A DNA stretch of 64,000 bases. It comes from Rugalucina vietnamica (Eukaryota > Mollusca > Bivalvia > Lucinida > Lucinidae). The notes beneath the pieces are model-generated. The model worked only from the letters and a program-made list of their open reading frames with translations, ran no database searches and was not told where the DNA came from. The stretch's first letter is position 1, and the number at the start of each line of letters is the position of its first letter. Positions 2,435 to 54,083 of the stretch are shown here, piece by piece. The translations under genes and the position numbers were made by a program. The stretch spans positions 5,937,214 to 6,001,213 of the forward strand of contig OZ024871.1 in the NCBI GenBank assembly GCA_964017185.1. The letters are read 5' to 3'.

Positions 2435-2461
2435 TACGGCCTTGTTTTTTGTTTGTTTTTT

Positions 2462-2744
2462 TTAGTTCACCTGAGCCGAAGGCTCACAGGTGAGCTTATA
2501 GTATACCCATGCTTTTATGGAGTTTAGGTGTCTCTGGAGCGAGTCTGCTAAATTTGGCGAAGCAAACTGTACACTGGTGATGTTCATTTCCAGAGTGAAC
2601 CGATCTTTTATGGCGTTGGAGGTTAGACTTTTCGTTGAATCGACGGCTGCAAATATCGCAGACATAATCTCCCTTTTCTCTCTGATTAGAAACCGCATCG
2701 GCCATCATTTGGAGTCTTCTAAGGTTTACCAAGTCAGCATTCAT
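2462..2744 (-). pseudogene. C2H2 zinc-finger fragment next to the polymerase relic
   Basis: The minus strand encodes one good C2H2 finger (YVCDICSRRFNEKSNLQRHKRSVH) followed by a second whose cysteines (CTVCFAKFSR) and histidine side (DSLQRHLNS) lie in different frames, so a frameshift near 2570 breaks it. The reading ends inside the small hairpin at 2465-2494. C2H2 fingers upstream of, or fused to, the polymerase are common in invertebrate Polintons, and only about 30 bases separate this from the polymerase start. I infer that both come from one element whose intervening sequence was lost. It could also be an unrelated zinc-finger gene fragment. Confidence 0.65.
2465..2494. repeat. Short hairpin of a dispersed family
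   Basis: The sequence cacctgagc-cgaag-gctcacaggtg folds into an imperfect hairpin. Similar CACCTGAGC/GCTCAGGTG hairpins are common in bivalve genomes as I know them. It lies exactly between the zinc-finger and polymerase relics and may mark the join where the intervening sequence was lost. Confidence 0.5.
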
Positions 2745-3512
2745 CAGACCATGTTGCGCAGCCCAGTTATTGAGCTGCTCCTATTGTCGGCTGGTGACAA
2801 ACAAAACGATAGTTGAAGTGCGTATCTTTATTATCTGACAATTATTGTTACATAAACAATACTCTATTTACGTTTAATACACTATTTACGCTTATTCACA
2901 GTTAATAGTCTCAGCGGTTTACACTATTTAAAAGTCACTTTAACCATCAATTCAGTTTAAATTCACTGAACTATGTAAGGGAACACAATTGTCAATATAG
3001 CTCACGCCGTTGTAGATTTTCTCACCTGTAGAAATATTTAACAAAAGTATTTCGGTTAACAATAATCTGTATGATAAAATACTGCAGGTAAATAATACAG
3101 TAGCATCAATGCTTGTGCAAAGCGAAATGATACTTTGTGCTTTTATAAGCTGCTGACTAGGGACTTTCCATTTTTACTATTTTAAGTCGGAGCAAGTTGA
3201 GACATGAATCCAGGTGGATGTATACCGCATTAAGACATACTGATTGTCTACGCGCCAGCGCGTAGACTACTCTAAGGTTTGAGATTGACCTTCTTACAAG
3301 ACAACTCATACACCTCTCTACAACTGCAACTGCACGTTTGAGTCTAGTGGCTTGACCATCGTGTTAGTATGATTCCGGGTCGTTTCGCCAAGGACCGTAT
3401 AAACACCCCCAAACACCCATGCAAACCTCCCTTTGGTTGGTAACATTTGTACCAATGGTGCAGTAGGTACCAAAAATGGGGCAAATTGTTAAATTCGTGG
3501 AACTGGTGCATG

Positions 3513-3990: not shown

Positions 3991-6900
3991 TGCCTAGGTC
4001 ACACTAGGGCTTACGTACGCTGCGGACGCTGCGGATAGGTGTTCCGTATCTGTCCGTCCTATCCATAACGATTCGTATCTCATCCGTAATGTCCGTAACT
4101 GTACGTATCGTATCCTCAGGGCGCGGTAGATCCGCGGGCAAATTTTCATAACTGTCAAAAATGCATGCGCGGATGGATGATCGGTAATGGTAGGCAATGG
4201 TACGTAACTGAAGGCATTTATTCGAATCTGTCCGTATCTTATCGCATCTAAACGTATCATTCCGCGATAAAGCATTTGTTGCGGATCGATACTGTTACAT
4301 ACGTGTTGTTTCGTTCGGTTGCGGTCTTTGTCGTTTATACACACTTTTCGATACAATTTAATACGTTCAGATACGAACACGTAATGTTACGGTTTTCCTA
4401 AAGTTTACACAGCATGCCACACGTATGACAGGATGCAACTTGAACAATGCTAATAAGCGTGTGGCTGAGCCCTCTAGAGCTGAGTGTTTGGGCATAACAT
4501 AATCTGTATCCAATGCTTGAATGAATCATACAAGAACGTTTCTGGAATATATAGTCTCCTTGACAAAAATGTCCGTCATTTTTCTATTATACAGGTAATT
4601 TATTTATTTAAGGATATCCATACTTCATTTATGGATATCCATAATTCATTTATGGATATCCTTAATTCATTTATGGATATCCTAAGATAATTAAAGATAT
4701 CCATCAATATTTTTGGATATCCTAAAATGAATTAAGGATATCCATAAATGAATTATGGATATCCATAATTGAATTATGGAAATCCTGAAATACATTTTTG
4801 GATATCCAAAAATCACGATGAATTATGGATATCCATAATTCGATTTTTGGATATCCAAAAATCGAATTATGGATATCCTTTAATCAGCTCATTTAAGGAT
4901 ATCCTTAAATGTGTTTTAGGATATCCAAAAATAAGCTTGAATTTAGGATATCCATAATTCGATTTTTGGATATCCATGATTCTTTTTTTGGATATCCATA
5001 ATGATCTGATTTAAGGATATCCATAATTCGATTTTAGGATATCCATAATTCATTTTAAAAAACATTTCTTTTCCATAATGATTTTTTCCGTGTAATACGC
5101 ATGCGCTAACTTAAACTGAACGAAACGGAAGCCAACGTAAATTCAACCACACCGGATGCCTCAATTCTCTGACTATGGAGAAATCATTATATCCCATAGG
5201 CACGTATGGGGTGCCATTTTACTATTTATTTCCTATTTAGGGATGTCCAAAATTCATTTTTGGATATCCATAATTATTTTTGGATACCCATAATTCTTTT
5301 TTGGATATCCTAAAATCGATTTATGGATATCCTTAATTCGGCTGAATATTGGATATCCATAAATTGATTTTAGGATATCCTACAATCGAATTATGGATAT
5401 CCTTAAATACAATCCTATTTTTGGATATCCATAATTCGATTAAAGGATATCCTGAAATCGGGCTTATATTGGATATCCATAATTCGATTTATCGTTAATT
5501 ATTGTAGGATATCCATAAATGAATTAAGGATATCCATAATACATTATGAATATCCTTAAATAAATTATGGATATCCAACAATAGGGAATAAATAGTAAAA
5601 CGGCACTCCATAGGCACGTACATCATTTTTTTGTGATTTAAGGATATCCTTAAATGAATTATGGATATCCTTAAATACAGTCCTATTGAAGGACATCCAT
5701 AACTCATTTATGGATATCCATAAATCGAATTATGGGTATCCAATATTAGCCCGATTTTAGGATATCCTTAAATCGAATTATGGATATCCAAAAATAGGAT
5801 TGTATTTTAGGATATCCATAGTTCGGTTGAAGGATATGCTAAATCTATTTATGGATATCCAATATTCAGACGAATTTAGGATATCCTTAAATTGATTTTA
5901 GGATATCCAAAATGAATTATGGATATCCAAAAAAGAATTATGGATGTCCAAAAATACATTTTGGATATCGAAAAAAATAAGGATATCCATAATTCATTTC
6001 AGGATATCCATAATTCATTATGGATATCCATAATTCATTTCAGGATATCCATAATTCATTTTAGGATATCCAAAAATGTTAATGGATATCCTTAATTATT
6101 TAAGTATAGCCATAAATGAATAAAGGATATCCATAAATAAATTATGGATATCCTTAAATGAATTATGGATATCCAAAAATAGGGAATAAATAGTAAAAAG
6201 GCACCCATAGGCACGTACATCATTTTTTGTGATTTAAGGATATCCTTAAATTATGGATATCCTTAAATACAGTTCTATTGAAGTACATCCATAACTCATT
6301 TATGGATATCCATAAATCAAATTATGGATATCCAATATTAGCCCGATTTTATAATATCCTTAAATCGAATTATGGATATCCAAAAATAGGATTGTATTTT
6401 AGGATATCCATAGTTCGATTTTAGGATATCCTAAAATCAATTTATGGATATCCAATATTCAGACGAATTAAGGATATCCATAAATCGATTTTAAGTATCC
6501 AGAAATGAATTTTGGATATCCAAAATGAATTATGGATATCCATAATTAGGGAATAAATAGTAAAACGGCACCCCATATGATTGTTGGTTGATGCGTTCAT
6601 TTACGGTGTAGATACGTTTGTGTTACGGTTTAGATACGGAAAGATTCGAATCAACGCCTTCATTTACATGTCATTACGTACTATTACGGGTGTTTCATCC
6701 GTGCCCAATTTTTGACTTTTTTCAAAATTTGGGCGCGGATGGAATCGGACTTGCATATACAATACGTTAAGATACGAACATATACGGAAAAGATACGAAT
6801 TGTTACGGATATGACGGATAGATACGAAAGGTCAGTCCGCAGCGTCCGCAGCATCCGGATGTGCTAGTGTGACTGTAGTTTGACTAAAACCTGCGTTTTC

Positions 6901-17337: not shown

Positions 17338-19530
17338 TTATGCAGGAAATAGTGGCGGGAAGGACTCGTCGATTGGAAGAGAAGATCCAGGGTCCGTCAG
17401 TTGCAGATCGCGAAACCAGTCACTAATACTATAATACATGTTCTTGTGCTGGTCCTGGGCATGTAACATGCTACACAGCTCACAGTATGCTTTCTGAGCT
17501 ACATCCCATTGACTTTGAACAATATACCTATCCTTCGTCTTCAGATACTCTGTGTATAGTTCTTCGCTACCCATTACCTGTTTTAAGTATGATGCAAGTC
17601 GTTTTGGGTAAAAGAATTTCTTCACGTCAATAACAGTTTTGTCCGGGACTAACCTACCGTAGTTTGCCGATCCGCCGACTATTTGAACCATGTCCTTGGA
17701 AAAGTTGTCAAACAATTTCTCCGTAACATAGTCAGTGAGATAATCATTTTCCAAATTAAAGCGGAAGAAATATTCTTCCTCCAGTTTTTCAACACATTCT
17801 TTGTCACCTTTTGGACATATATCCCGACCACATTTCCCGACTATGTCAATGTCAATATATTTACTGAGTTCTTCGGCGTAATCCTCACGCCTCGACCTCG
17901 TTCTACAATGACTCACAAACCAGATGATACCCTTTCTCTTCTTTTTGTAAATAGCCGAATAATCCTTCGCTGGCGTCGCGCCAATTCTTGGCACTATTGC
18001 ACCGTAGGGATAGAAAATATCTGAGTCTCTTCGAAAGGTCATTGTCCAATTGAACATATATTCAAAATTCTGGCTCGGTATTCCGCCTGCGGCTGTCGGT
18101 TCTCTCTCCACGGCTACAAACACCTGTCCAGGTCGTTTCAGTGGTGGGTGACCGATTGTTCTTAATTTGTTGATTTGTATTAGAACCGCGTCACCACCTA
18201 AAGGCTCATAATATTTACATGTATCTGATTCATTGAATATAAACCAATCGGCTTCACATTTACATTTGCACATGGAGAAGTCCACTCGCCTACACTGTTC
18301 CCTCATGCCACTTCCATTATGCCAAACATCAAACCAGATTATTTTTTGTGTAGAATTTGTGCATTGAGGTATGACTTTGGACTTAGTGTCGGGCATACCT
18401 GTAAGCAATGATTTGGCTTCGTCGAACCTAAGTTTCATATCTGTCTGACTATAAGATTCAGGTAAAGCGTCATATATTTTAAAGAGTGGTACCTTTTTCT
18501 CAGTGTAACCTAACCTAAAGTTACTCTTCTTATCTAACTGCACTTCTTTGACCACGGGCCCGATATCAGAGCTTTTGCCAACTTTTGTTTCCTCGACAAC
18601 GGATCTACTTGTGGAGACTTTGCTATCCTTCTCTTCCTTGACTGTGGGCCCGGCATTGGACACTTTGCTTTCATTCTCTTCCTTAGCTGTGGGTCCGGCA
18701 TTGGACACGTTGCCATCTTTTGTTTTTGTGACAGGGGGTCTGAAAGTTGGGACTTTGCTACCCTTTGTTTCCTTAGCGGGAGATCCGGCGTTTGAGACTT
18801 CTCTATCTTTTGTTTCTATGACAATGGGTCCGGTATTTGGGACTTTGATACCCTTTTCTTCATTGACAGTGGGCCCGGTATTTGAGACTTTGCTTTCTTT
18901 CGTTTCCTTGGCAGGTGGTCCTCCATTTAGGACCTTGCTATCCTTCGTTTCTTTGGCTACGGGTTCGACGTTTGAGACTTTGCTGTCCTCAGTTTCCTTG
19001 ACAAGCGGTCCGATATTGGAGACTTTGCTATCCTTCGTTTCCTTGACAGGGGGGCCTGCATTTGAGACTTTGCTATTCTTTTCTTTTTTGACAAAAGCTC
19101 CTGTATTGGACGCTTCACTATCCTTTGCAGATTTTTCAACGTGTGGTATTTTATTTTCCGTATTACCTAAGCTACCCTTTCCCGACTCTCCTGACTTTGC
19201 TTCTCTGGCACCAGAGAATTCGTTATTCTGTGTATCGCTGACCAAAGACCCGCTACTCGGGATTTTCATATTCTGTACGTCTTTGTTAGATCGTATCGCC
19301 TGAGTAACTTGGTGTGCACTTCCTCTTGTCATAGAACTACCCATCATAACAATAGCTGCTCCACCCAGTACTAAAGCTGTGATTACGATTTTGGTGTACT
19401 TGGACCGTCGCAGCTTTATATACAGCTTTCCAGCCCTACAACCTGAAAGTTGTCCATATGAGCCGGTTAGTGGGAAAACCAACAATGTGGTTTTCGAACA
19501 GTTCTGACACAAACCAGGCTGTACAAGCAC
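17338..19530 (-). CDS. Alpha-1,3-fucosyltransferase (GT10) with repeat-expanded stem
   Basis: The 730-residue reading frame encodes a Golgi type II membrane glycosyltransferase that would move fucose from GDP-fucose to N-acetylglucosamine on glycans. Residues 40-46 are basic and 47-65 form the signal anchor. Residues 138-332 are about thirteen degenerate 15-residue repeats (SKVSNAGPPVKETKD type), a long charged stem. The N-terminal GT10 region follows (IIWFDVWHNGSG at ~397, FNWTMTFRRDSDIFYPYG at ~493), then the donor-binding domain: GIIWFVSHCRTRSRREDY (~534) and the hallmark LENDYLTDYVTEK (593-605). Catalytic-region motifs look intact. The first ~25 residues, including the ATG at 19530, lie inside a MITE (19455-19698). 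A pyrimidine-AG acceptor-like site (ctttcag) sits just after the MITE, so the true 5' end may come from an upstream exon. The paralogue at 52625-53983 lacks the repeats. Confidence 0.9.
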   Translation of the reverse strand: MLVQPGLCQNCSKTTLLVFPLTGSYGQLSGCRAGKLYIKLRRSKYTKIVITALVLGGAAIVMMGSSMTRGSAHQVTQAIRSNKDVQNMKIPSSGSLVSDTQNNEFSGAREAKSGESGKGSLGNTENKIPHVEKSAKDSEASNTGAFVKKEKNSKVSNAGPPVKETKDSKVSNIGPLVKETEDSKVSNVEPVAKETKDSKVLNGGPPAKETKESKVSNTGPTVNEEKGIKVPNTGPIVIETKDREVSNAGSPAKETKGSKVPTFRPPVTKTKDGNVSNAGPTAKEENESKVSNAGPTVKEEKDSKVSTSRSVVEETKVGKSSDIGPVVKEVQLDKKSNFRLGYTEKKVPLFKIYDALPESYSQTDMKLRFDEAKSLLTGMPDTKSKVIPQCTNSTQKIIWFDVWHNGSGMREQCRRVDFSMCKCKCEADWFIFNESDTCKYYEPLGGDAVLIQINKLRTIGHPPLKRPGQVFVAVEREPTAAGGIPSQNFEYMFNWTMTFRRDSDIFYPYGAIVPRIGATPAKDYSAIYKKKRKGIIWFVSHCRTRSRREDYAEELSKYIDIDIVGKCGRDICPKGDKECVEKLEEEYFFRFNLENDYLTDYVTEKLFDNFSKDMVQIVGGSANYGRLVPDKTVIDVKKFFYPKRLASYLKQVMGSEELYTEYLKTKDRYIVQSQWDVAQKAYCELCSMLHAQDQHKNMYYSISDWFRDLQLTDPGSSLPIDESFPPLFPA

Positions 19531-19698
19531 TGAAAAGGGCTAGAAGCTTGAAATTTCGGATTTAAGTAGAAAAGGAATTGTACTATCCGAGTAGCGAAAA
19601 CAAAGGCGCGGATCAGCTTCGCGGTTACCGCGAAGCTGATCTGCGCCTTTGTTTTCGCATATACAGATTGTTTGTTTTCCCATGAGTCGGCTCATATG
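19455..19698. mobile_element. Foldback MITE at the fucosyltransferase 5' end
   Basis: The inverted ends catatgagccgg (19455-19466) and ggctcatatg (about 19689-19698) bound a ~244-bp element. Its core contains a near-perfect hairpin, gcggatcagcttcgcggtt/accgcgaagctgatctgc, at about 19609-19646. Related copies lie at 52333-52575, 54084-54304 and 63828-64000. Element sequence on the minus strand provides the ATG and roughly the first 25 codons of the fucosyltransferase reading frame. Confidence 0.8.
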
Positions 19699-19796: not shown

Positions 19797-19802
19797 GACG
19801 AC
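19797..19802. repeat. Target-site duplication, left (gacgac)
   Basis: Six bases, gacgac, directly before the element terminus agtagtaat. The same six bases directly follow the right terminus at 24474-24479. A 6-bp duplication is the size known for Polintons. Confidence 0.9.
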
Positions 19803-20589
19803 AGTAGTAATGGGCGGCGCTATGGGCTCATTTTCTGAAACTTATGGGTCCATTTTTATGGGTCCATTTCAGATAAGCGTAGCGCTAGAAATGGAGCCAT
19901 AAAAATGGACCCATAGCGCGCACCCTGGGTCTCAGTTTTAAAAATGAACTAGCTAAGTTGCATGTGTAGGTAAGTATCCTTGAGTTAAGACAAGCCTGCA
20001 CATCTGCTCATCTGCACATCTGCACATCTGCTCATATGCACATCTGCTCATCTGCACATCTGCACATCTGCTCATCTGCACATCTGCACATCTGCACATT
20101 TGCACATCTGCTCATCTGCACATCTGCTCATCTGCACATTTGCGCATCTGCACATCTGCCCATCTGCACATTTGCACATCTGCACATTTGCACATCTGCT
20201 CATCTGCACATCTGCTCATCTGCACATTTGCTCATCTGCACATCTGCTCATCTGCACATTTGCACAACTGCACATCTGCTCATCTGCACATTTACACATC
20301 TGCACATTTGCACATCTGCACATTTGCACATCTGCACATCTGCTCATCTGCAGAATTTGCACATCTGCACATTTGCACATCTGCACATCTGCACAATTGC
20401 ACATCTGCACAATTGCACATCTGCACTTCTGCACATCTGCACTTATGCACATTTGCACATCTACACATCTACACGCCTACACATCTTTAGAGACTATGAG
20501 ATAACTGACATAGTCAAGTTTTTCTCTAGGTAAGTTCCATTACGAAATTAAGAAAGGGCCTTTTTCCTCTAGTGTTCCTGGGTAGACTT
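19803..20589. repeat. Mini-Polinton left terminal inverted repeat
   Basis: The order is: terminus with mirrored 'atgggtccatttttatggg' words (19803-19925), a unique part (ctgggtctcagttttaaaaatg), the 8-bp minisatellite, then agagactatgagataactgacatag and an inner end at ctgggtagactt (20589). The order is mirrored at 23704-24473. This copy lacks about 25 bases of the outer foldback that the right copy keeps. Confidence 0.9.
19998..20486. repeat. 8-bp minisatellite CACATCTG/CTCATCTG
   Basis: About 60 tandem copies of an octamer alternating between cacatctg, ctcatctg and cacatttg, ending in cacatctacacgcc. Long open frames across it in several frames (His-Ile-Cys-Ser-Ala-type repeats) follow from a stop-free repeat unit and are not genes. 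The mirrored array lies at 23813-24256. Confidence 0.95.
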
Positions 20590-21162
20590 AATTGATTTTG
20601 CATAAGCATCCACATCTACACAAACATAGAAACTTAAAGTAAAATGCCTCTTTGTTTTATTATTATTCACAGATTAGTATAGGCCATTAAAACTTTATAT
20701 AAGTGAAGTTTTCAAAGATTATAAAAATTTGTGAATGGAAATTTGCATATTGAAATCCATTCTCATATCAAAAGTAAGAAAAGTGTTGCAATTATTTTAT
20801 TGAATGTAATACAATTTACTTAAATATCACATTTTCTAATTAAAAAAAAGAAAATAAATAAACACATTTTGCTTGAATATGCACAGAAAAGTTTTATTAA
20901 TTTTATAGTTGATATATTTTTACGTTCAGGGGGAACTATCGATATTGTTTTTTTTCTGAGAAAAACAAAAGTAGGTTAGCATTTTCAGAAAATTATAAAA
21001 CTGAAAGTAGATGATTTTCGGAAAATGACACATGAATGAAAATCGACAAAAGATGATGTTATATACAGTTTTGCATTTAAATCAAACTGATATAAAGCAT
21101 TTGCGTTTCTGAAGTTATCCATTCACTCAAGTAGTACTAACACATTCTGTAGTTCTTCAAAC
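20590..21162. other. Upstream region of the mini-Polinton genes
   Basis: AT-rich sequence between the left inverted repeat and the first reading frame, with no ORF of its own. It probably holds the promoter of the capsid-related gene, but I cannot point to one convincing element. Confidence 0.4.
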
Positions 21163-22004
21163 ATGAAGGATTTTTACATGACATTACTAAGTGACAGTTC
21201 TATGAACATGTTCCCATCAAATAAACAGTCTGAATTTACTGTAAGATTGGATCATCCTATTAAAATTGACGTGGAAAGCTGGGAGGTTGCCTTGGTTGAA
21301 ATTGCAACACCATCTGAAGTTCTCAACATAACAGAAGAAAACAACTTTTTCTTTTTGACTTTCCTAGACCAATCCAGTTACGCAGAGTTGGAAATCAAAA
21401 CATCAAAGAGATATGTAGCAGTGAAAACGGCTGCTATAACTTCAAACTAACAATTTCAACTGGAAATTATGAGTCACATGAATATCTAGCTGAAGAAATG
21501 CAGAACTCCATTGACAACTTTGAAAAAGGCATACTGAAAAAATTCAATGCTCACATTACTATGACATATGATCATTTGAGTCAACGTTTCAAAATATCAG
21601 CCCAAAACGAACGGCTGGTTAGGCTAATATTCCCAAAACAATTTGCTCAGATCTTAGGATTAGATTCATCATTAGTTGAAAAGCCTATAGGAAATGAGCA
21701 AAATGTGTTTAAGTTCAATGCAAAGTTGAATCACAATTCTAGCAACTTCTATGTTTATTCTGACATTGCAAGTTTCACTTTTATTGGTGATACTGTAGCA
21801 CCTATTTTACGAGTTGTTCCATTTCAAAGTAAATCAGATTCATATTTCTTCTATAAAGAATTTAAAACTCTGCACTATGTTTCTGTTTCAAAATCTATTG
21901 TAGACCAAGTGAACATTACATTAAAAATAGAAAATGGTATGATTGTTCCTTTTGTAACAGGCAAAACGATTTTAAAATTACACTTTCGTAGAAAGAAAAA
22001 CTAG
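21163..22004 (+). pseudogene. Polinton capsid-related (minor capsid/penton-like) protein, one frameshift
   Basis: The family is a ~280-residue protein found in invertebrate Polinton-like elements. The N terminus reads FYMTLLSDSSMNMFPSNKQ, then FTVRLDHPI and SWEVALVEIATPSE. The C-terminal half has FYVYSDIASFTFIGDTVAPI (a family hallmark, ~21748-21807), LRVVPF, and the end block IVPFVTGKTILKLHFR. The frame changes by one base near 21430, after YVAVKT, and the second frame then runs open to 22004, so a single event separates two otherwise clean halves. It may be a real mutation or a sequencing error. I infer a minor capsid or penton-type role from knowledge of the family; the sequence itself does not show it. 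The gene is followed by two same-strand genes. Confidence 0.75.
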
Positions 22005-22104
22005 TATAAATATAATCTAAGAGTTTGTAAAATTATCAGTTTTGTACAACATGCTTAAGAGATTACGTCTTTAGAAAAAACAGACAAAACAATCCTGCAA
22101 GTCT

Positions 22105-22377
22105 ATGGAAGAATCTAAGAAAACACCTGTGACACAGAAACCGAGTGGATCTCATGCAAGTTATGCACAGATCAGAAACCTTATGAAAAGGTTGAATACA
22201 GCTTTGAGTAAAAGGCTTAGAGAGGGCAGACCATCGAAGTATTGCAGAGTGTGTCGGGCTGAACTGTTAAAAGAACTGTCAGAGAAAAAGAAGAAATCAA
22301 CAGCTAAACGTCAGAGGATTACAAAGAAACCCAATCTGAGAAGAACTAGAACAAAACCAACTCCAGCTATGGTATAA
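22105..22377 (+). CDS. Small basic protein of the mini-Polinton
   Basis: This 90-residue frame is strongly basic, with Lys/Arg-rich patches (KRLREGRPSKY, KKKKSTAKRQRITKK) and one CxxC (YCRVC). I do not recognise a named family. Its size, charge and place between the capsid-related and zinc-finger genes would suit a DNA-binding or core protein of a virus-like element, but that is inference. The start is the first ATG after a 100-base gap, and the stop lies 47 bases before the next gene, so the three frames form a tight same-strand cluster. Confidence 0.65.
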   Translation: MEESKKTPVTQKPSGSHASYAQIRNLMKRLNTALSKRLREGRPSKYCRVCRAELLKELSEKKKKSTAKRQRITKKPNLRRTRTKPTPAMV

Positions 22378-22424
22378 AAGAGACAGACTCAGGATGAATC
22401 TCAGTATTCTTCGACTAACCAGCT

Positions 22425-23240
22425 ATGTGTCGATATCAGTGTCATCAGTGCGATCGAGTATTTGCCAGATCATACAATTTGAGAAGACACAAGGACAGTG
22501 GTATCTGCAGAGGTGCTGAGGTTATCATGTTAGACAGTGATGAAGAAAGTGTTATGTCTGAAAGAAGATCACTGGACGATGGAAAAGACATCTTCAGAAA
22601 ACCTGATCTTGAAGATGTAGAAGAAGTCGATGAGGAAAAAGAGGATGAAACTGAAGAAAGTGAGGAAGATGAGGAAGAAGAAGATGAAGAAGAAGATGAT
22701 GTTGATGAAGAAGAAGATAATGATGATGATGAGAATGATATTGATGATGATGAGGAGGAGGAGGAGGAGGAACCTCAGAAAATAAAACCATGGAATGTTT
22801 TGATGGGCGTTACGACAGATAAGATGCAAGACACTTTCAACGAAACGGTTGAAAAGGTCCTGCATGAAAATCCTGGCAAAGGCGTACAAGAGGCTGAAGA
22901 GATAGCATATGATGAGCTGAAGCCAAAGTATTTGTCAGAGTTCGTATCCCGCTACAAGTATCTGACTGATCTCTCAGCTGCACTTAGAAAAGATCCAGTT
23001 AACAAGAAAATACAGGAAACAGCTAAACGATTGAGGGATGAAGAAGAATATGACGAGGACGAATCAAGACTGTATGCCATCAAGAAACGAAAATTTTTGA
23101 TTGAGAAGAAACTGAATGACTATGACCCACCAAGCTACGAAGTGGCCGAGGAACAGACATTATTGTTGCCACATAAAACACATATGAACAATATTAACAA
23201 TAAACCAAAGAGTAGCTATATTCAGGGGAAACACTTGTAA
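22425..23240 (+). CDS. C2H2 zinc-finger protein with acidic tract
   Basis: The 271-residue protein has one N-terminal C2H2-like finger (YQCHQCDRVFARSYNLRRHKDSGIC, ending in C rather than H). Residues ~60-120 form an almost pure Glu/Asp tract encoded by gatgaa/gaggag repeats. The C-terminal half is a predicted helical, charged region beginning KPWNVLMGVTTDKM and containing YLSEFVSRYKYLTDLSAAL. Proteins with one or two fingers followed by an acidic run are frequent in invertebrate Polintons; their function is unknown to me. The finger suggests nucleic-acid contact. The frame is intact over its whole length despite the repetitive tract, suggesting a fairly recent copy. Confidence 0.75.
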   Translation: MCRYQCHQCDRVFARSYNLRRHKDSGICRGAEVIMLDSDEESVMSERRSLDDGKDIFRKPDLEDVEEVDEEKEDETEESEEDEEEEDEEEDDVDEEEDNDDDENDIDDDEEEEEEEPQKIKPWNVLMGVTTDKMQDTFNETVEKVLHENPGKGVQEAEEIAYDELKPKYLSEFVSRYKYLTDLSAALRKDPVNKKIQETAKRLRDEEEYDEDESRLYAIKKRKFLIEKKLNDYDPPSYEVAEEQTLLLPHKTHMNNINNKPKSSYIQGKHL

Positions 23241-23703
23241 ACGAGAACAGAGGGACGGTCCTAATCCTCTGTTTCATCGTGCATTCATAGTTAGCGGGAC
23301 AAATTAAATTGTTGAAAATGTTATTCAGTTTTGGGTTTTTATTTCTCCTCTCAGGAGGTAGTAGTAAAGGGTTTAAAGTTTGACAATAACTAGCTGAGTT
23401 TTTAACACTTATCAATGTTCTCGAGATACGAAAACATTGAAAAGCCTCAATATATTAGGAAGACGCTATAAAGTTATGCCTTTTGACTAGTTGAGGTCTT
23501 GAGATACAAGACCAAGAGACAGTGAAATGCATACCACTTTCAAGCCTCTAAGGAAACTATAGAGTCATGCCTCTAACAGAGTTGAAGTCTTGAGATACAA
23601 GACTAAGACACTCTTCAGACGCATTCAGCTGTATAGCAACATAATCTTCTACATACCCACACATAGCCATCCCAGACAAGTCCAGCAAGTGTCACAACGT
23701 GAG
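23241..23703. other. 3' region of the mini-Polinton genes with short direct repeat
   Basis: A ~50-base phrase (tata-agt-atgcct ... gttga-gtcttgagatacaaga) occurs near 23465-23520 and again near 23565-23612. No coding sequence is supported. The segment ends at the inner edge of the right inverted repeat. Confidence 0.6.
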
Positions 23704-24473
23704 AAGTCTACCCAGGAACACTAGAGGAAAAAGGCACTTTCTTAATTTCGTAATGGAACTTACCTACAGAAAAACTTGACTATGTCTGTTATCTCATAGT
23801 CTCTAAAGATGTGTAGGCGTGTAGATGTGTAGATGTGCAAATGTGCAGAAGTGCAGATGTGCAGAAGTGCAGATGTGCAAATGTGCAGATGTGCAGATGA
23901 GCAGATGTGCAAATGTGCAGATGAGCAGATGTGCAGATGAGCAGATGTGCAAATGTGCAGATGTGCAAATGTGCAGATGAGCAAATGTGCAGATGAGCAG
24001 ATGTGCAGATGAGCAGGTGAACAGATGAGCAGATGAGCAGATGAGCAAATGTGCAGATGTGCAGATGTGCAAATGTGCAGATGAGCAGATGTGCAGATGC
24101 GCAAATGTGCAGATGAGCAGATGTGCAGAGGAGCAGATGAGCAGATGTGCAGATGTGCAGATGAGCATATGTGCAAATGTGCAGATGTGCAAATGTGCAG
24201 ATGAGCAGATGTGCAGATGTGCAGATGAGCAGATGTGCAGATGAACAGATGTGCAGGCTTGTCTTAACTCAAGGATACTTACCTACACATGCAACTTAGC
24301 TAGTTCATTTTTAAAACTGAGACCCAGGGTGCGCGCTATGGGCTCATTTTCTGAAAACTTATGGGTCCATTTTTATGAGTCCATTTCTAGCGCTACGCTT
24401 ATCTGAAATGGACCCATAAAAATGGACCCATAAGTTTTCAGAAAATGAGCCCATAGCGCCGCCCATTACTACT
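23704..24473. repeat. Mini-Polinton right terminal inverted repeat
   Basis: This is the reverse complement of 19803-20589 in the same order, including the octamer array (23813-24256). Its outer ~140 bases (24330-24465) are themselves a foldback: ctatgggctcattttctgaa, then aacttatgggtccattttta, mirrored around tctagcgctacgc. The left copy has lost part of that foldback. Confidence 0.9.
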
Positions 24474-24960
24474 GACGACATGACATCCAGAAAGTGCTTC
24501 AAATATAACCAACCAAGCCAGTAAGGGGTATATGCATTGATGGTTTGACTTGAACCGCTTTTCCTGAGCAGGTTCAGACCTTAGCGGTTAACCAGTAACC
24601 AGATGGACAGTCTGTAGCGTGGAAGCTATTTCTTTAGTCTTCGGTGGAGTTCGGGGAATGTGAACTATTCCCACCTGACCACTGAGCTCCTATAAGAACA
24701 GTGAACATATAAATGATAAAGGGGATGGTCATACTGGGTTTTGGCTACTTTAGCCCTGTAAGTGACCCTTTAGATTTGACAACATGGAGCCAAAGGAGAA
24801 TTACTGTAGTATCATATTTACTGGAATTATATGTAGTTTACTGCATAACAGCGACGGCATGTGAAAAACTTTGCGAGACAAGATCTCAGATATATAGACC
24901 GTGCGAGAGAAGAGCTTATGATTTAAATGGTAGCTTCATAAGACGTACTGATCATTTGAA
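24474..24960. repeat. Target duplication and right half of the split dispersed repeat
   Basis: gacgac (24474-24479) is the right target duplication. After it, atgacatccagaaagtgcttcaaatataacc aligns with atgacatccaaaatcgtttcaaatataatc near 58851, and caggttcagaccttagcgg with caggctcagacctgagagg near 58943. Further pieces of the same family occur inverted near 36480-36720 and direct near 37135-37265. No gene is supported. Confidence 0.7.
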
Positions 24961-27965: not shown

Positions 27966-28567
27966 ATTTTTGTCAGAACTGTTCGGAAACCACATTTGGT
28001 TATATATAAAATAAATCCAAATAAAAGATACCTACAGAAAGTCCGAAATACAGACAACATAAAGACAAAACACAGCAGAATCGCCCTGGACTGGTCAGCA
28101 AAGAAATTACAGTAGGGATTTAATTCATTTTTCGAGGTCCAAATTTCTCGCCTTAGTCTGCTGAAATTTAGAAAATCAGACTCTTTGGGTATTGAAATAC
28201 GAGAGTTACCGCGTTTATATTTGTAAGACATATTAAATACAAAAAAAAATTGCTTCACTGTCGCGGTAAGCATTAATCAGCGCTACCTCCTCAGCCATGT
28301 GACTACTCATGTAGATGTTAAACAAAACCTAATTTGACACACAAAAAATCAACATCGTTGGATGAACCAGGGACGGGGTAACTGAAATCAATAATTATAA
28401 TTAACTGTTATTAAATACAATTGTCAACGTAATCGCATGTAAATGTAATCATGGCTTTGTTCAAATACATGTAATGATTACAATTAATGATATTATTTCA
28501 GTTGTAATCACAAATAATTTCTAATACTTTTGAACTACATTTCACATTTTCTTAATAAAAATTAAAA

Positions 28568-30100
28568 CCCCGGGAGCTAATTTGACCTACCTTGCACCCC
28601 CCCAGGACAATTTTTCATGGGTGTCAAATCGTTCATTGGGACCCCAGAAATGCAAAGAATTTTTGTCCTCAAAGATAAACTCAATTGCACTATGAAAAAA
28701 TGCATGGTTTCCATGGCAACCGTTAACGCGATTCTTGAGCATGGGGGTGTACATAGAAAATTGACCATATCTCCATTGTTGCTTATCCTAGACCACTGAA
28801 ATTGGTCTCATTTTAAAGCTGAGATATAGCCCATTCATCCTATAGTGAGTAGTGCATGTTCATGAAATTTAATGAAAACATTAAAAATGACAGAAAAAGC
28901 CTTAAAATCCATAAATAAACTAATTTCAGGTCCAAACTGCCATTTAGACACTTTTTTATTGAACCAGTAATATTATATGACAAATTTATTGATGATCTGG
29001 GCCTATATGAAAATTATCTCATTTGCATATTCATGAATATTAATAAAAATGTCAAAAAATGAGGAAAAACAAGGGGAAAACTATATCCATTGCAAGGATT
29101 TGGATAGGTTATGAGGTCTATCTGGCATCCATTTAACCAATTCCCATGGCTGCCAGTGTGGTCAGAGGGACCACCTAAATGACATAAAATATTGTCCTCA
29201 ATGATGAACACATTTGCATGATTCACCCACCCCTTGTGCGATTCTAAAAAATAGGAGGTACTTACAAAAATACTCACATCCCACCAATAGCATGCTCTAG
29301 GATACTATAATTGGTCTGATAGTGATGCATGAACCTAACAATTTAACCTTGATACCATATATTTATATCATAGAATTTGCTTATTCATGAAAATAAATAA
29401 AAAAAATAAAAAATGGAGAAATATTGTGGAAAAATAGGGGGTATACATACAAATCGCTTGTACCAGAGCTATTAATAAACCCAAGATGCTGAAAGAGGTT
29501 TCAAACGAATGCTATTGCAATGTACTATGGCCCTGAAGTATGATTTAAGAATAATCTGATTTTCAGTTTCATGAATTTTCATGAAAACTTAAGAAATTTG
29601 AGGGAAAAAGTTGAAAACTTAAATAGGTAAACCTACAAAATGACTTGCATCTCAGCAATAAAAAGCCCTATAGTGCTAAAAATGGTATCAAATGGCTGCT
29701 ATGGTAATATTATACCATCCTGTACTACACTATTTAAGTTATTTGATATTTTGTTTGAAGAATATTAACAAAAATTTTTGAATTATGTGAAAAAATACAG
29801 AAAAATAAAGGGGGTATACGTAGAAAAATGCACATATCTTGGCTACTGAAAGACCTAGAGAGCTCTAATTGGTATCAAATAATTGCTAGGACAATGTTCT
29901 ATGACCATGTAATCAGCAATATATAACATTAACTATTGTTGTTGTATGGATATTAATGATATCGTCATAAATAAGAGAAAAACCAATGAAAAATGACGGG
30001 GTACACCAACCAAATCGTTAATATCTCATTTACCAATAGCCATAGAGAACTCAAAATGGCATCAATTTATTGCTAGGACAATGTATTATTGCCAGGTACT
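28568..30100. repeat. Left arm of a large palindrome
   Basis: The outer end ccccgggagctaatttgacc is mirrored at 34483-34501. The two arms can be followed for ~1.5 kb with moderate divergence (for example ggtttccatggcaaccgtta and ccatggctgccagtgtgg and their complements near 34346 and 33900). Within the arm a degenerate ~200-230-base motif repeats (ctgaaattggtctcat..., gtgtacatagaaaat...), so each arm is itself a diverged tandem repeat. TTAA lies two bases outside each outer end (28562-28565, 34504-34507). No protein gene is supported; the frame at 29014-29277 is mirrored in the other arm and looks incidental. Confidence 0.85.
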
Positions 30101-30160
30101 CAGATATGTGAATCATCTTCGCTGGCAAGCAAGATTTATTAAATTTTGTTTAAGCACAGC

Positions 30161-30369
30161 TGGACAGAAGACGAACTGATACGTTAAATGGTTCCTCATT
30201 ATAAAGTTCACTAATTGGACGTTACGTGATGTGCGTAACGTTAGCGTAACGTGAGAGAACGTTTAGGGTTGCTAGGAGCTGAAGTTTCGCCATTGCTAAC
30301 AGTTAGAAGTTTGTCATTAAAGTCGAATAATTGAAAGCTGAATCGTTTTATTTCCATAATCGGGGAAAT
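30161..30369 (+). repeat. Left LTR
   Basis: Starts tggacagaagacgaactgat and ends ccataatcggggaaat. It includes the dyad-like gttacgtgatgtgcgtaacg. It appears identical to the right LTR. Confidence 0.92.
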
Positions 30370-30381
30370 CGTAGAAACATC

Positions 30382-30397
30382 TGGTAGCAGAGCGAGG
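30382..30397 (+). other. Primer binding site
   Basis: tggtagcagagcgagg begins 12 bases after the LTR and starts with the TGG expected for pairing with a tRNA CCA end. Similar tggtagcagagcg sites occur in BEL/Pao-type elements as I know them. Confidence 0.6.
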
Positions 30398-30435
30398 TTT
30401 ATCTGAAATTTGAATCATGCAAATAATAATTTGGA

Positions 30436-32454
30436 ATGGCATCGGCAAACCTTGGAAACTTTGATTACCGCCAGAACTCAATCGACGTCGCCGTGCAGGA
30501 AGCTGGATTAAGAATAGATGTGGCAAAAGCGAAAGCCAACTTTTGCAGATCACGACATGCTTTGTTATTGATGACAAAATTTCAGAACTTGCAAAGTAGC
30601 GGAGGGTTTTGTGATGCCTGCTTCAGTATGAATACATGTATGGAAAACGCAATAGAAGTTCTATCAATGTGCGCATCATTTTATATTGAACATAAGATGC
30701 TACAAAATGGAAACTCTATGGTTCGTGAGATGGAACAATTAGAGACAGATTTCTATGCAGCATATGAGACGGCTTGGGCATATCTAGACTCTCAGAATAC
30801 ACGTACCTCAAATCAGGTATCAGACAAGGTAGGAACTTTAGATAAAATCAAAACCTGTGAATCGATCCGAATTAAAGAACAAAGTCCGTCACCAAATCTT
30901 ACTAGCAAGACACTACAAACGGAAAGTCGTACAAATTCAAAACCGGGCTACGGACTCGTCGAGCATAACACAACAATACAATATGATGCAGAAGAACAGA
31001 ATCGATCACAAAACAACGAAAACAGAGAAAACCCAAATCAAAACATAGCAGAAAGCTGTACAACCCCTAGCATTGGACAAGACCTGTGGACACAACTTGA
31101 ACGTGTAAAGGTCCCTACATTTTTCGGAGACAAGAGACATTATCCGACCTGGAAGGCTGCGTTTATGGGGTGTATAGATAACGCGCCAGTTACACCAGAA
31201 TATAAATTGCTACAGTTACGGCAGTATGGAGAAGCATTGGAAGCTATCGAAAATTTAGGACATTCGTCATTCGCATACAAGGCCGCCAAAGATCGTTTGG
31301 AGAGAAAGTATGGGGGCAAGCGACGTCGGATAGCCATTTTTCTTGAAGACTTGGAGCGGTTTCAACAGATACCGCCCGACAACGCCGTGGAGCTAGAAAG
31401 ATTTGCAGATTTGTTAGACTTAACAGTAATTAATCTCAAAGAAGCAGGTGAGGATCAAGACCTCGGAGATGGTTCCCTGTACATACAACTGCAACGAAAA
31501 CTGCCACAGTCTCTGCTGGCGAGGTACCACCGTTGGCTCTTCGAAAACAACGTGGTGGCATCGGTGATTGCATTAAAAACGTGGGTAAACGAAGAATCAC
31601 GTTTTCAGACGATCGCTGCCGAGACAGTTAATGGATTGACCAGCCAAACCGATAATATCGAGTCAACACCACCAACACGAAACACAGACCACAGGACATT
31701 CTTCATCAACGAGAGAACATGTCATCCCCAACAGAAACAGTCATGCCAAATATGTAAAGAACAGCACAGGATTTGGGAATGTCATACGTTTATGCAAAAC
31801 GACATATCGAAACGATGGAATATAGCAAGAAAATTCAAACTTTGCTATCGTTGCTTAGCAGAAGGTCACCAGGGTAACGCATGCCGTAAAACTAGACGAT
31901 GTGGAATAGATAGCTGTCATCAAGTGCATCATAGACTTCTTCATATAGTAAGAACCGGTGGGCCAGCAATTTCGGAACAAACGTCAAATACCGAACAAAA
32001 GTTAAAACTGTACACCAAAACGCCGCAAGATAGTCAAGAACCAGAATCTGCTTGCTCAGAATTCACTTTCGGCATGGAGGGGAACAGGTTCACAGAACAA
32101 GAAAAGGACTTTGCACACGCATATTTTGCTGGTTGTCAAATGAAAATCGACAACATGAATGACTGTTCCAGTGTGAATAAATCGAAGGAAACTGTAGGAT
32201 TGATAGAAAACGCCAGACCAGGCAACACTACCGATGAACGAGTAATATCATCTAATACCGGGGAACAACTTAGATGTCAAGCAGAGAATTCGTATTCTAC
32301 GAACGACCCCATACCGAACAGGCGTACGTTTTCACGGAGGGGAACTAATGCCGTTTGCTCATCAGATATATTTTCCAGCGGTCGCAACATGGGTGTGCGA
32401 CCAGTCAATAGCCGAAAGGACTATCACGAAGGAAAGGTAGAAAGATTCGCTTAG
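30436..32454 (+). CDS. Gag-like polyprotein of BEL/Pao type
   Basis: The 672-residue frame is the only gene of the LTR element and would form its RNA-packaging particle. Residues ~230-410 match the DUF1759-like region of BEL/Pao Gag (KVPTFFGDKRHYPTWKAAF, LERKYGGKRRRIAIFLEDL, LPQSLLARYHRWL). Zinc-binding motifs follow: CQICKEQHRIWEC (~436), a true CCHC knuckle CYRCLAEGHQGNAC (~469), and a C/H-rich CGIDSCHQVHHRLLH. The ~170 residues after them are low in recognisable features and end VERFA before a stop, with 237 bases to the right LTR. In autonomous relatives this is where protease and reverse transcriptase would begin. The frame is fully open and the LTRs look identical, consistent with a recent insertion. 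The ATG lies 66 bases after the LTR. Confidence 0.85.
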   Translation: MASANLGNFDYRQNSIDVAVQEAGLRIDVAKAKANFCRSRHALLLMTKFQNLQSSGGFCDACFSMNTCMENAIEVLSMCASFYIEHKMLQNGNSMVREMEQLETDFYAAYETAWAYLDSQNTRTSNQVSDKVGTLDKIKTCESIRIKEQSPSPNLTSKTLQTESRTNSKPGYGLVEHNTTIQYDAEEQNRSQNNENRENPNQNIAESCTTPSIGQDLWTQLERVKVPTFFGDKRHYPTWKAAFMGCIDNAPVTPEYKLLQLRQYGEALEAIENLGHSSFAYKAAKDRLERKYGGKRRRIAIFLEDLERFQQIPPDNAVELERFADLLDLTVINLKEAGEDQDLGDGSLYIQLQRKLPQSLLARYHRWLFENNVVASVIALKTWVNEESRFQTIAAETVNGLTSQTDNIESTPPTRNTDHRTFFINERTCHPQQKQSCQICKEQHRIWECHTFMQNDISKRWNIARKFKLCYRCLAEGHQGNACRKTRRCGIDSCHQVHHRLLHIVRTGGPAISEQTSNTEQKLKLYTKTPQDSQEPESACSEFTFGMEGNRFTEQEKDFAHAYFAGCQMKIDNMNDCSSVNKSKETVGLIENARPGNTTDERVISSNTGEQLRCQAENSYSTNDPIPNRRTFSRRGTNAVCSSDIFSSGRNMGVRPVNSRKDYHEGKVERFA

Positions 32455-32680
32455 AAATGATTTGCACGGACTTTTAGTCTTTACCATTGACAATGGTTAA
32501 TTTTAGTTAAATGATAAAGCAGTTTATTTGCTCATTCTTACGATTATAGACATTAGTTTTGTTGTATATCATCCAGTTATACAATCTTTTTTACGATTTG
32601 AATTGTATTAAATGCAATGCAATGTGTCACAGAAGCGGTATAGCATCATTAAGTTATGGTCAAAATGATAAATATTTTGA

Positions 32681-32690
32681 GGAGGGGAAA
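32681..32690 (+). other. Polypurine tract
   Basis: ggaggggaaa directly precedes the right LTR, as expected for the plus-strand primer of an LTR retrotransposon. Confidence 0.75.
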
Positions 32691-32691
32691 A

Positions 32692-32900
32692 TGGACAGAA
32701 GACGAACTGATACGTTAAATGGTTCCTCATTATAAAGTTCACTAATTGGACGTTACGTGATGTGCGTAACGTTAGCGTAACGTGAGAGAACGTTTAGGGT
32801 TGCTAGGAGCTGAAGTTTCGCCATTGCTAACAGTTAGAAGTTTGTCATTAAAGTCGAATAATTGAAAGCTGAATCGTTTTATTTCCATAATCGGGGAAAT
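32692..32900 (+). repeat. Right LTR
   Basis: Same 209 bases as the left LTR. The flank after it (tcagaaaatttt) does not repeat the bases before the left LTR. Confidence 0.92.
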
Positions 32901-32934
32901 TCAGAAAATTTTGTAACATTTTGTTAAATTATCA

Positions 32935-34501
32935 GACCACATGGCAGTAGTGTTTTTTTCCTAGCTATCTATTGGTACCATTTTCAGCACTCTAGGGATA
33001 TTGGCAGTTGAGATATAAGCAATTTTGTTGGTATACCCCTTCATTTTTCGTCGATTTTTCTCTTATTTATGACAATCTCTTTAATATACATACACCAACA
33101 ATAGTTGATGTTTTATATTGCTGATTACATGGTCATAGAACATTGTCCTAGCAATCATTTGATACCAAATAGAGCTCTCTAGGTCTTTCAGTAGTCAAGA
33201 TATGTCCCTTTTTCTACGTATACCCCCATTATTTTTCCGTATTTTTTCACTAAATTCAAAAGGTTTTGTTAATATTCTTCAAACAAAAAATCAAATGACT
33301 TAAATACTGTAGTACAGGATGGTATGTTATTGCCATAGCCACCATTTGATACTATTTTCAGCACTATAGGGCTTTTTATTGCTGAGATGCAAGTCATTTT
33401 GTAGGTTTACCCATTTAAGTTTTCAACTTTTTTCCTCAAATTTCTTAAGTTTTCATTAAAATTCATGAAATTGGAATCAGATTATTTTTATATCATACTT
33501 CAGGGTCATAGTACATTGCAATAGCCTTCATTTGAAACCTCTTTCAGTATTCTGGGTTTATTAATAGCTCTTATACAAGCGATTTTGCATGTATACCCCT
33601 ATTTTTTCCACGATTTTTCTCCAAGTTAGAATGTTTTTTATTAGTTTTCATGAATAAGCAAATTCTATGATAAAAATATAAGGAATCAAGGTTAAATTGT
33701 TAGGTTCATGCATCACTATCAGACCAATTATAGTATCCTAGAGCATGCTATTGGTGGGATGTGAGTATTTTTGTAAGTACCTCCTATTCTTTAGAATTGC
33801 ATGAGGGGTGGGTGAAGACTATGTCATTTTACATCATGCAAATGTGTTCATCATTGAGGACAATATTTTATGTCATTTAGGTGGTCCCTCTGACCACACT
33901 GGCAGCCATGGGAATTGGTTAAATGGATGCAAGATAGACTTCATAACCTATCCAAATCCTTGCAATGGATATAGTTTTTCCCTTGTTTTTCCTCATTTTT
34001 GACATTTTTATTAATATTCATAATTATACAAATGAAATAATTTTCATATAGGCCCAGATCATCAATAAATTTGTCATATAATATTACTGGTTCAATAACA
34101 AAGTGTCTGGATGGCAGTTTTGACCTGAAATTAGTTTATTTATGGATTTTTAAGGCTTTTTTCTGTCATTTTTAAGGTTTTCATTAAAATTCATGAATAT
34201 ACAAATTAAAAAATTTGCATTACTCACTATTGGATAAATGGGCTATATCTCAGCTTTAAAATGAGACCAATTTCAGTGGTCTAGGATAAGCAACAATGGA
34301 GATATGGTCAATTTTCTATGTACACCCCCATGCTCAAGAATCGCGTTAACGGTTGCCATGGAAACCATGCATTTTTTCATAGTGCAGTTGAGTTTATCTT
34401 TGAGGACAAAATTCTTTGCATTTCTGGGGTCCCAATGAACGATTTGGCACCCATGAAAAATTGTCCTGGGGGTGCAAGGTAGGTCAAATTAGCTCCCGGG
34501 G
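32935..34501. repeat. Right arm of the large palindrome
   Basis: Reverse-complement partner of 28568-30100. The open frame at 33808-34002 in this arm is the mirror of one in the left arm and encodes no recognised domain. Confidence 0.85.
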
Positions 34502-34507
34502 TATTAA

Positions 34508-35104
34508 TCATCACCAGAAAATTAAAGATGCAATTTAAAGATACATTTAGTGGAGCGGGCTGGCGCAGTCGGTAGTGCATCGGACTTTGTATTGCAGATA
34601 AACTTGGAGATATAAACTCATCTTGTCAATCTTTACGCAGCGCATTAAAGATATTTGTCTCCAAAACTGGAGAAGTAGCATAAAAACTCCCCAAAAGCGG
34701 AGCATTACAAGTATTTTAAGACGCAGCTCGACGTAGAGAAAAACTTACTCATTGATTTAAGTTTCGTTTGTAGGCCATTGGCAAATTTTAGATGTTCTTG
34801 CCATAAATTGCAAATTGAAAAGGGGCGGCATAATGATACCGATAGGGAATATAGATTTTGTCCACTTTGTTTAGAGAGAAATGTTTATATCATTGAAGAC
34901 ATTTTTTTTCTTTTTTTTTCATGGTGTGTTCACTGTATCAAGATCTAAAAGATTCACTTCAAACCAATGTGGCAAATGTAAATATCTTTACATAAATTTT
35001 ATTCAGTCATGAAACCAAATGATGTGGAAAGCATATTTTCTATTGCAAATTTTCTTGTCGATACATTTGAACTAAGGAATTCGATCTATGATGGTTAAGA
35101 AATA
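34508..35104. other. Intergenic with a weak tRNA-like head
   Basis: gcgggctggcgcagtcggtagtgcatcgg at about 34556-34584 resembles a tRNA A-box region and may be a decayed SINE head, but no B box follows at the right distance. Nothing else is supported. Confidence 0.35.
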
Positions 35105-53983: not shown

Positions 53984-54083
53984 CTTGCAACCTGTAGTGA
54001 ATTTCAGTATTATGAAAAATTGTCCATGTAACATAAAGAGATATTTTTCAGCTGTAAAAGGTTGAAGTTTTCATTGGAAACAA

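What the first reader, a model, noticed from the sequence alone, without database searches (positions are those of the whole stretch)
19803..24473. A complete miniature Polinton with long TIRs and only three passenger genes
Seen: exact inverted termini AGT...ACT, ~780-bp inverted repeats, a 6-bp duplication gacgac, and three same-strand ORFs. Known: autonomous Polintons are ~15-20 kb and carry polymerase B, integrase, ATPase, protease and capsid genes. Inferred: this 4.7-kb element keeps capsid-related, basic and zinc-finger/acidic genes but none of the mobility genes, so it is a non-autonomous derivative or a satellite-like passenger of a Polinton virus. Retention of near-intact late-type genes is odd for a plain deletion derivative and may indicate function.
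Basis: partly seen in the sequence, partly recalled or inferred. Interest (0 to 1): 0.88.

Follow-up and report, generated by a model that had tools for sequence, protein, structure and literature searches.

The report
Coding satellite of an animal Polinton
This 4.7-kb jumping element shares its ends with a full-size 18-kb virus-like Polinton in the same animal genome but carries its own, very different capsid-vertex gene and two extra genes, as if it were a small parasite of the larger element.

Summary
At 19803-24473 lies a 4,671-bp element with AGT...ACT tips, 787/770-bp TIRs (712 of 746 aligned bases identical) and a 6-bp GACGAC duplication. It is a family: 31 other loci in the 1.09-Gb host genome match at least 3,200 of 3,301 interior bases. 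Of 23 copies examined, 19 show both tips and 15 of these have perfect 6-bp duplications. Three inverted tip pairs about 18.37 kb apart mark full-size Polintons. Pieces of them carry PolB, integrase, packaging ATPase and an adenain-like protease, each seen in one copy, and a penton seen in all three.

The small element is no plain deletion of these. Its right end matches theirs (88-96%), but its ORF1, a penton by predicted fold, is only 48.5-49.8% identical to their penton, in a separate lineage. ORF2 and ORF3 were not found in their pieces. ORF1 and ORF3 subfamilies match on 7 of 7 shared contigs. Purifying selection is significant for ORF1 only. Best reading: a coding satellite mobilised in trans by a Polinton; packaging is inferred.

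The parts
19797..19802 (.). Left copy of the 6-bp target-site duplication GACGAC
24474..24479 (.). Right copy of the 6-bp target-site duplication GACGAC
19803..20589 (+). Left terminal inverted repeat (787 bp)
   Evidence: alignment of the two ends, 712 of 746 aligned bases identical
23704..24473 (-). Right terminal inverted repeat (770 bp)
19996..20486 (.). 8-bp CTGCACAT-type minisatellite inside the left TIR; not seen next to the tips in the partner's ends
   Evidence: 61.2 units; blastn of partner ends skips it
23807..24256 (.). The same minisatellite inside the right TIR
24260..24473 (-). Outer 214 bp of the right end shared with three 18.37-kb Polintons (88.8-93.5%); the left tip matches them at 81-83%
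23235..23721 (+). Right subterminal segment (487 bp) shared with the Polintons at 92.7-94.1%, starting at the end of ORF3
21163..22004 (+). ORF1, penton (capsid vertex) gene, broken by a frame change in this copy; 280 aa in intact relatives
   Evidence: fold
22105..22377 (+). ORF2, small basic protein (90 aa here; 104 aa in 18 of the 20 full-length copies counted)
22425..23240 (+). ORF3, C2H2 zinc finger, acidic stretch and conserved C-terminal region (271 aa)

Best explanation
A coding satellite of a Polinton virus. Shown: it ends in the same tips and the same right subterminal segment as 18.4-kb Polintons of the same genome, has none of the mobility genes, and has inserted many times with 6-bp duplications like theirs. 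Shown: it carries a penton of a lineage separate from the Polinton's own, and two genes not found in the Polinton pieces. Inferred: the Polinton's PolB and integrase copy and insert the small DNA in trans through the shared ends. Inferred, weaker: the small DNA is packaged in the Polinton's capsid with its own penton at the vertices, while ORF2 and ORF3 bind DNA and favour the satellite.
For: Shared ends: tips 81-93% and right ~487 bp 92.7-94.1% to three large copies; 88.2-95.9% over 23 small copies, 20 of 23 at 93% or more, against 96.1-96.3% between large copies. Same 6-bp duplications in small (15 of 19 with both tips) and large copies (3 of 3). Large copies have PolB, rve+chromo, ATPase and an adenain-like protease in the pieces read. 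ORF1 is a penton: all 34 Foldseek hits at E<=0.001 are mavirus, Sputnik, adenovirus or PBCV-1 entries. It is distinct from the partner penton, 48.5-49.8% (tree). The gene set is old: ORF1 and ORF3 subfamilies agree on 7 of 7 shared contigs. Constraint on ORF1: omega 0.555, 2dlnL 6.24.
Against: No direct sign of packaging or of penton use. Selection on ORF2 and ORF3 is not significant, and private changes in ORF1 are near neutral (0.83). Intact-ORF counts are biased, since 20 copies were taken for similarity to the window; the two picked by tip have ORF1 broken. Only three large copies were looked at, in pieces, and a large element carrying ORF1-ORF3 elsewhere is not excluded, as the wider searches did not complete.
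Confidence: 0.55

Rival explanations
1. A deletion derivative of a different autonomous Polinton, not yet seen, that has an ORF1-type penton, ORF2 and ORF3 among its normal genes; its ends were exchanged with the 18.4-kb family by recombination.
For: The gene order penton then a basic protein is also that of the partner's late end (penton, then a 156-aa basic frame). A preprint reports some adintoviruses with duplicate pentons (PMC11071296, passages). The first look in the genome was capped: 40 of 952 candidates scored.
Against: All 3 large tip pairs found carry the other penton; every fetched copy in which both tips were found is short; ORF1 and ORF3 travel together in three subfamilies.
Confidence: 0.25
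2. A plain non-autonomous element in which the three genes are inert passengers, moved because the ends are recognised.
For: Omega for ORF2 and ORF3 is not significantly below 1 (0.77 each). ORF1 is broken in the window and in 7 of the 22 other copies.
Against: ORF1 omega is significantly below 1. ORF1 is intact in 15 of 20, ORF3 in 17 of 20 fetched copies, against 0.11-0.34 in a rough neutral simulation at 0.7-1.5% divergence. Frames of similar length persist at 50-70% protein identity between subfamilies.
Confidence: 0.15
3. A host-kept or host-useful element: its divergent penton spoils Polinton particles and so protects the host.
For: High copy number and a vertex protein unlike the partner's. 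A Polinton-like virus that lowers its helper's replication and protects the alga is a precedent (PMC12945077, abstract).
Against: Dispersed, similar copies with perfect duplications fit self-driven spread. No fixed, host-regulated copy was looked for or seen.
Confidence: 0.05

Closest known systems
Polinton/Maverick elements (polintoviruses; adintoviruses of animals)
   Same: AG...CT tips, long TIRs, 6-bp duplications (tip and duplication rule recalled), penton gene; tips and right end shared with 18.4-kb members in the same genome
   Different: 4-5 kb in place of about 18 kb; no PolB, integrase, ATPase, protease or major capsid gene; separate penton lineage; ORF2 and ORF3 extra; array inside the TIRs
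Virophages and hyperparasitic Polinton-like viruses (mavirus, Sputnik, CpV-PLV Moe)
   Same: Penton of the same fold; dependence on another virus-like element proposed; DNA integrates in host genomes (mavirus, recalled)
   Different: Those encode their own capsid and packaging genes and rely on giant viruses; this encodes only a penton and shares its ends with its presumed helper
Phage satellites that use or alter helper capsids (P4, PICI; recalled)
   Same: Small integrated element, helper genes in trans, few structural genes of its own (by analogy only)
   Different: Bacterial, unrelated genes; capsid alteration is not shown here
MITEs and other non-autonomous DNA transposons
   Same: Shares ends with an autonomous partner; no integrase; many copies
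   Different: Carries three protein genes, one under detectable constraint and two conserved across subfamilies

Membership tests
Polinton/Maverick (autonomous) | Terminal inverted repeats with AG...CT tips and 6-bp target duplications | tested here: met
   the rule itself is recalled
Polinton/Maverick (autonomous) | Protein-primed PolB, rve integrase, packaging ATPase and protease genes | tested here: not met
   No such frame of 60 aa or more fits in the 4.7 kb and Pfam finds none in its ORFs; the 18.4-kb partners have them
Polinton/Maverick (autonomous) | Major capsid protein (double jelly roll) gene | tested here: inconclusive
   The three genes are ORF1 (penton), ORF2 (90 aa) and ORF3 (271 aa); ORF2 and ORF3 folds were not determined, but neither looks like one by length or composition
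Polinton/Maverick (autonomous) | Penton (PX) gene | tested here: met
   P0001 model matches mavirus, adenovirus, Sputnik and PBCV-1 pentons; ~49% identical to the partner penton
Non-autonomous element of a Polinton family | Ends shared with an autonomous element in the same genome | tested here: met
Non-autonomous element of a Polinton family | Several dispersed insertions with target duplications | tested here: met
Simple deletion derivative of the 18.4-kb Polinton | Interior sequence is a subset of the partner's | tested here: not met
   ORF1 is only 48.5-49.8% identical to the partner penton and ORF2/ORF3 have no match (E 0.08 and 0.03) in pieces covering all but about 0.2 kb
Satellite virus | Genes of its own kept by selection | tested here: inconclusive
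   ORF1 significant, ORF2 and ORF3 not
Satellite virus | Replication and packaging that depend on a helper | not testable with these tools
   Inferred from shared ends and missing genes only

The most novel reading that the evidence does not exclude
Animals harbour an old class of capsid-altering Polinton satellites: small integrated DNAs moved and packaged by a Polinton virus that carry their own penton lineage and two DNA-binding proteins, so that satellite particles have vertices different from the helper's, and that have evolved as a three-gene unit in several subfamilies.
Probability: 0.35. Interest if true: 0.9.

Novelty: new variant of a known kind. Interest (0 to 1): 0.74.

Why it matters
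Polintons are argued to be viruses mainly from their gene content. A gene-bearing satellite that keeps a penton under constraint would be indirect evidence that Polinton particles are really made in animals, because a vertex protein is of little use without them. It would extend virus-satellite parasitism, known from phages and protist virophages, to an animal host. It also gives a matched pair in one genome whose shared ends mark the cis signals for replication, integration and perhaps packaging.

Tried and rejected
Rejected: one internal deletion of the partner (different penton, two genes not found in it). Rejected: a chance inverted repeat (reversed-pattern control 0). Rejected for now: a two-part virus in which the large element lacks a penton; all three large copies have one.

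Led nowhere: IMG/VR scans with ORF1 and ORF3 alignments and distant relatives found none; prokaryote contigs none. Pfam and PHROGs gave no informative match for ORF1 and ORF2 (seven ORF1 relatives). Rfam none. PDB by sequence: nothing, weak or zinc-finger matches; one weak line (E 1.7) is a penton. The partner's 436-aa frame matched nothing informative. The fold of ORF3 and the viral fold library were never accepted by the busy machine. Frames at window 979-2780(-) look like a decayed Polinton PolB (recalled motifs), but Pfam shows only a C2H2 finger and the match to the partner PolB is weak (best E 0.001). Literature: six phrases for non-autonomous or miniature Polintons gave 0 papers; six more gave 3 papers, each by the one term 'Polinton-derived', seen in listing only. 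[quoted passage not shown]
Full report
Observation. The element is at 19803-24473 (4,671 bp), with tips AGTAGTAATGGG...CCCATTACTACT and GACGAC on both sides. The arms align over 787 and 770 bp with 712 of 746 aligned bases identical. Each arm has an outer part, an array of CTGCACAT-type 8-bp units (61 at left; 450 bp at right) and an inner part. A loose count of units varies between copies. Three genes lie on the + strand. ORF1 is interrupted here: the ATG frame 21163-21450 is overlapped out of frame by one open from 21318 to 22004.

A family, not one event. The host genome is 1,089,854,562 bases in 47 contigs. The interior (window 20500-23800) gave 952 first-look candidates, of which 40 were scored, so counts are lower bounds. 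32 places, the window's included, match at least 3,200 of 3,301 bases; the other 31 are 91-97% identical. I fetched 20 of these 31 and two more found by tip alone, which were not in the list. Both tips were found in 17 of 21 (20 copies plus the window); 13 of the 17 have a perfect 6-bp duplication and one has 5 of 6. The two tip-selected copies have CGCATT and AAGATG. Together: 15 perfect among 19 copies with both tips, of 23 examined. Misses: four copies had no recognisable tip at one end, the pairing of L016 is probably wrong, and L012 and L023 have unmatched flanks. L009 has an extra tip upstream.

The partner. The 24-base tip with up to 2 mismatches occurs 19 times, the reversed control 0 times. 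By my pairing of the 19 sites: three short inverted pairs (window 4,671 bp; C2 4,932; C13 4,147), three long ones (C1 18,372; C9 18,374; C17 18,379), one pair 89 bp apart edge to edge (C7) and five single sites. The long ones have perfect duplications: GAGAGT (C1), CACATA (C9) and ACTGTA (C17). I read them in separate pieces of the three copies. Pfam finds PolB in the C17 piece (PF03175, 5.7e-49, 1,112-aa frame), and in the C9 piece an integrase (rve 6.6e-13) with a chromodomain and a Pox_A32/FtsK-type ATPase (3.3e-5). In the C1 piece it finds an adenovirus-type protease (PF00770, E 0.0026, 17.9 bits, below the 21.3 cut-off). So each of these genes was seen in one copy; the penton was seen in all three. 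A 436-aa frame beyond the penton is probably the major capsid protein, by position only. The partner TIR is about 228 bp at 99.1%.

What is shared and what is not. The small element shares with the large ones the outer 190-214 bp (right tip 88.8-93.5%, left tip 80.9-82.7%) and 487 bp inside the right TIR, starting at the end of ORF3 (92.7-94.1% to the three large copies). Over all 23 small copies this segment is 88.2-95.9% to the C1 partner, with 20 of 23 at 93% or more; the other two large copies are 96.1-96.3% to it. The array and inner TIR had no blastn match in the partner ends beyond the shared segments. The genes tell another story. P0001, the intact database relative of ORF1, is 48.5-49.8% identical to the partner penton. 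In a tree of 42 pentons (41 that I chose from those listed, plus the partner) the partner groups with P0198 (98.9% identical), P0199, P0202, P0214, P0212 and P0083 (99/93), and P0001 falls in another supported group (96/93). ORF2 and ORF3 have no counterpart in the four large pieces (best tblastn E 0.08 and 0.03), which by their positions cover all but about 0.2 kb of the layout. Old genes with a recent right end suggest exchange of ends between small and large elements.

The three genes as a unit. ORF1b has 118 relatives at E<=0.001, ORF3 has 74, and the wider ORF1 family 690, of which 120 were listed. One contig length is printed per cluster; 7 of the 117 ORF1 lengths recur among the 73 of ORF3. 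In all 7, ORF1 and ORF3 fall in the same subfamily (A once, B and C three times each); rank correlation of identities is 0.55, p 0.01, over 21 non-independent pairs. P0150 has an ORF2-like stretch ahead of its ORF3 part (by eye). Whether the other subfamilies are short elements is not known. Relatives named as a Candidatus Thiodiazotropha MAG are probably clam host DNA in a symbiont bin, and the window is probably from a mollusc (inference).

Selection. ORF1 is intact in 15 of 20 fetched copies (one starts at residue 14), ORF2 full-length in 19 of 20 and ORF3 intact in 17 of 20; with the window 15, 20 and 18 of 21. The script prints the 104-aa form of ORF2 as 'broken' because it is longer than the window's 90 aa; one search counts it as full-length. 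These copies were picked by similarity to the window, which favours intact ones. In the two picked by tip ORF1 is broken in both, ORF2 open in both and ORF3 open in one. A rough neutral simulation gives 0.11-0.34 intact for ORF1 and ORF3 and 0.43-0.66 for ORF2 at terminal divergence 0.7-1.5%. Noncoding pairwise distance is 0.079 (5') and 0.039 (3'); dS is 0.042, 0.023 and 0.045 and dN/dS 0.42, 0.63 and 0.53 for ORF1, ORF2 and ORF3. Private against shared changes give 0.83/0.33, 0.63/1.10 and 0.56/0.30, on small counts. Codon-model omega is 0.555, 0.77 and 0.77; only ORF1 is significantly below 1 (2dlnL 6.24, against 0.53 and 1.6). Decay after insertion is mixed into these values.

Mechanism. 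Shown: shared ends, no mobility genes, repeated insertion with the duplication length of the partner. Inferred from Polinton biology: the partner's PolB and integrase act in trans on the shared ends. Inferred more weakly: packaging in the partner's capsid with this penton at the vertices. A vertex protein under constraint in an element with no recognisable major capsid gene is most simply explained if it joins another element's capsid. ORF2 (basic) and ORF3 (C2H2 finger, acidic) may bind the array or chromatin; untested.

Novelty. Polintons, virophages, helper-inhibiting Polinton-like viruses (PMC12945077, abstract) and phage satellites are known. I found no paper on a small, gene-bearing Polinton with its own penton (the held library lacks most subscription papers, and Repbase was not searched). 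PMC10294476, PMC11071296 and PMC6431247 were seen as passages only. I rate it a new variant of a known kind. On checking, I lowered the probability of the boldest reading from 0.40 to 0.35, because each partner mobility gene was seen in one copy only and the wider survey did not complete.

Noticed in passing
window 979-2780 (-): Broken frames that look like a decayed Polinton-type PolB with an N-terminal C2H2 finger; Pfam supports only the finger and the match to the partner PolB is weak.
   Followed up: partly
window 28561-34508: Inverted repeats of about 1.5 kb (90.5%) around a 674-aa frame with a DUF1759 (Pao-type) domain; possibly another composite element.
   Followed up: partly
window 17341-19539 (-) and 52628-54070 (-): Two fucosyltransferase (GT10) genes; the first has a long repeat-rich insert and lies next to the element's left flank.
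   Followed up: no
window 4598-6545: About 2 kb of palindromic GGATATCC-type minisatellite.
   Followed up: no
G000 C7:4828796-4828908: Two element tips face each other within 113 bp, perhaps a fused or hairpin end product.
   Followed up: no
L009 (C2:73176763-73184059): A small-element copy with an extra tip about 1.4 kb upstream of its left tip.
   Followed up: no
P0079, P0194, P0222: ORF1 relatives filed under a Candidatus Thiodiazotropha MAG, probably clam host DNA in a symbiont bin.
   Followed up: partly
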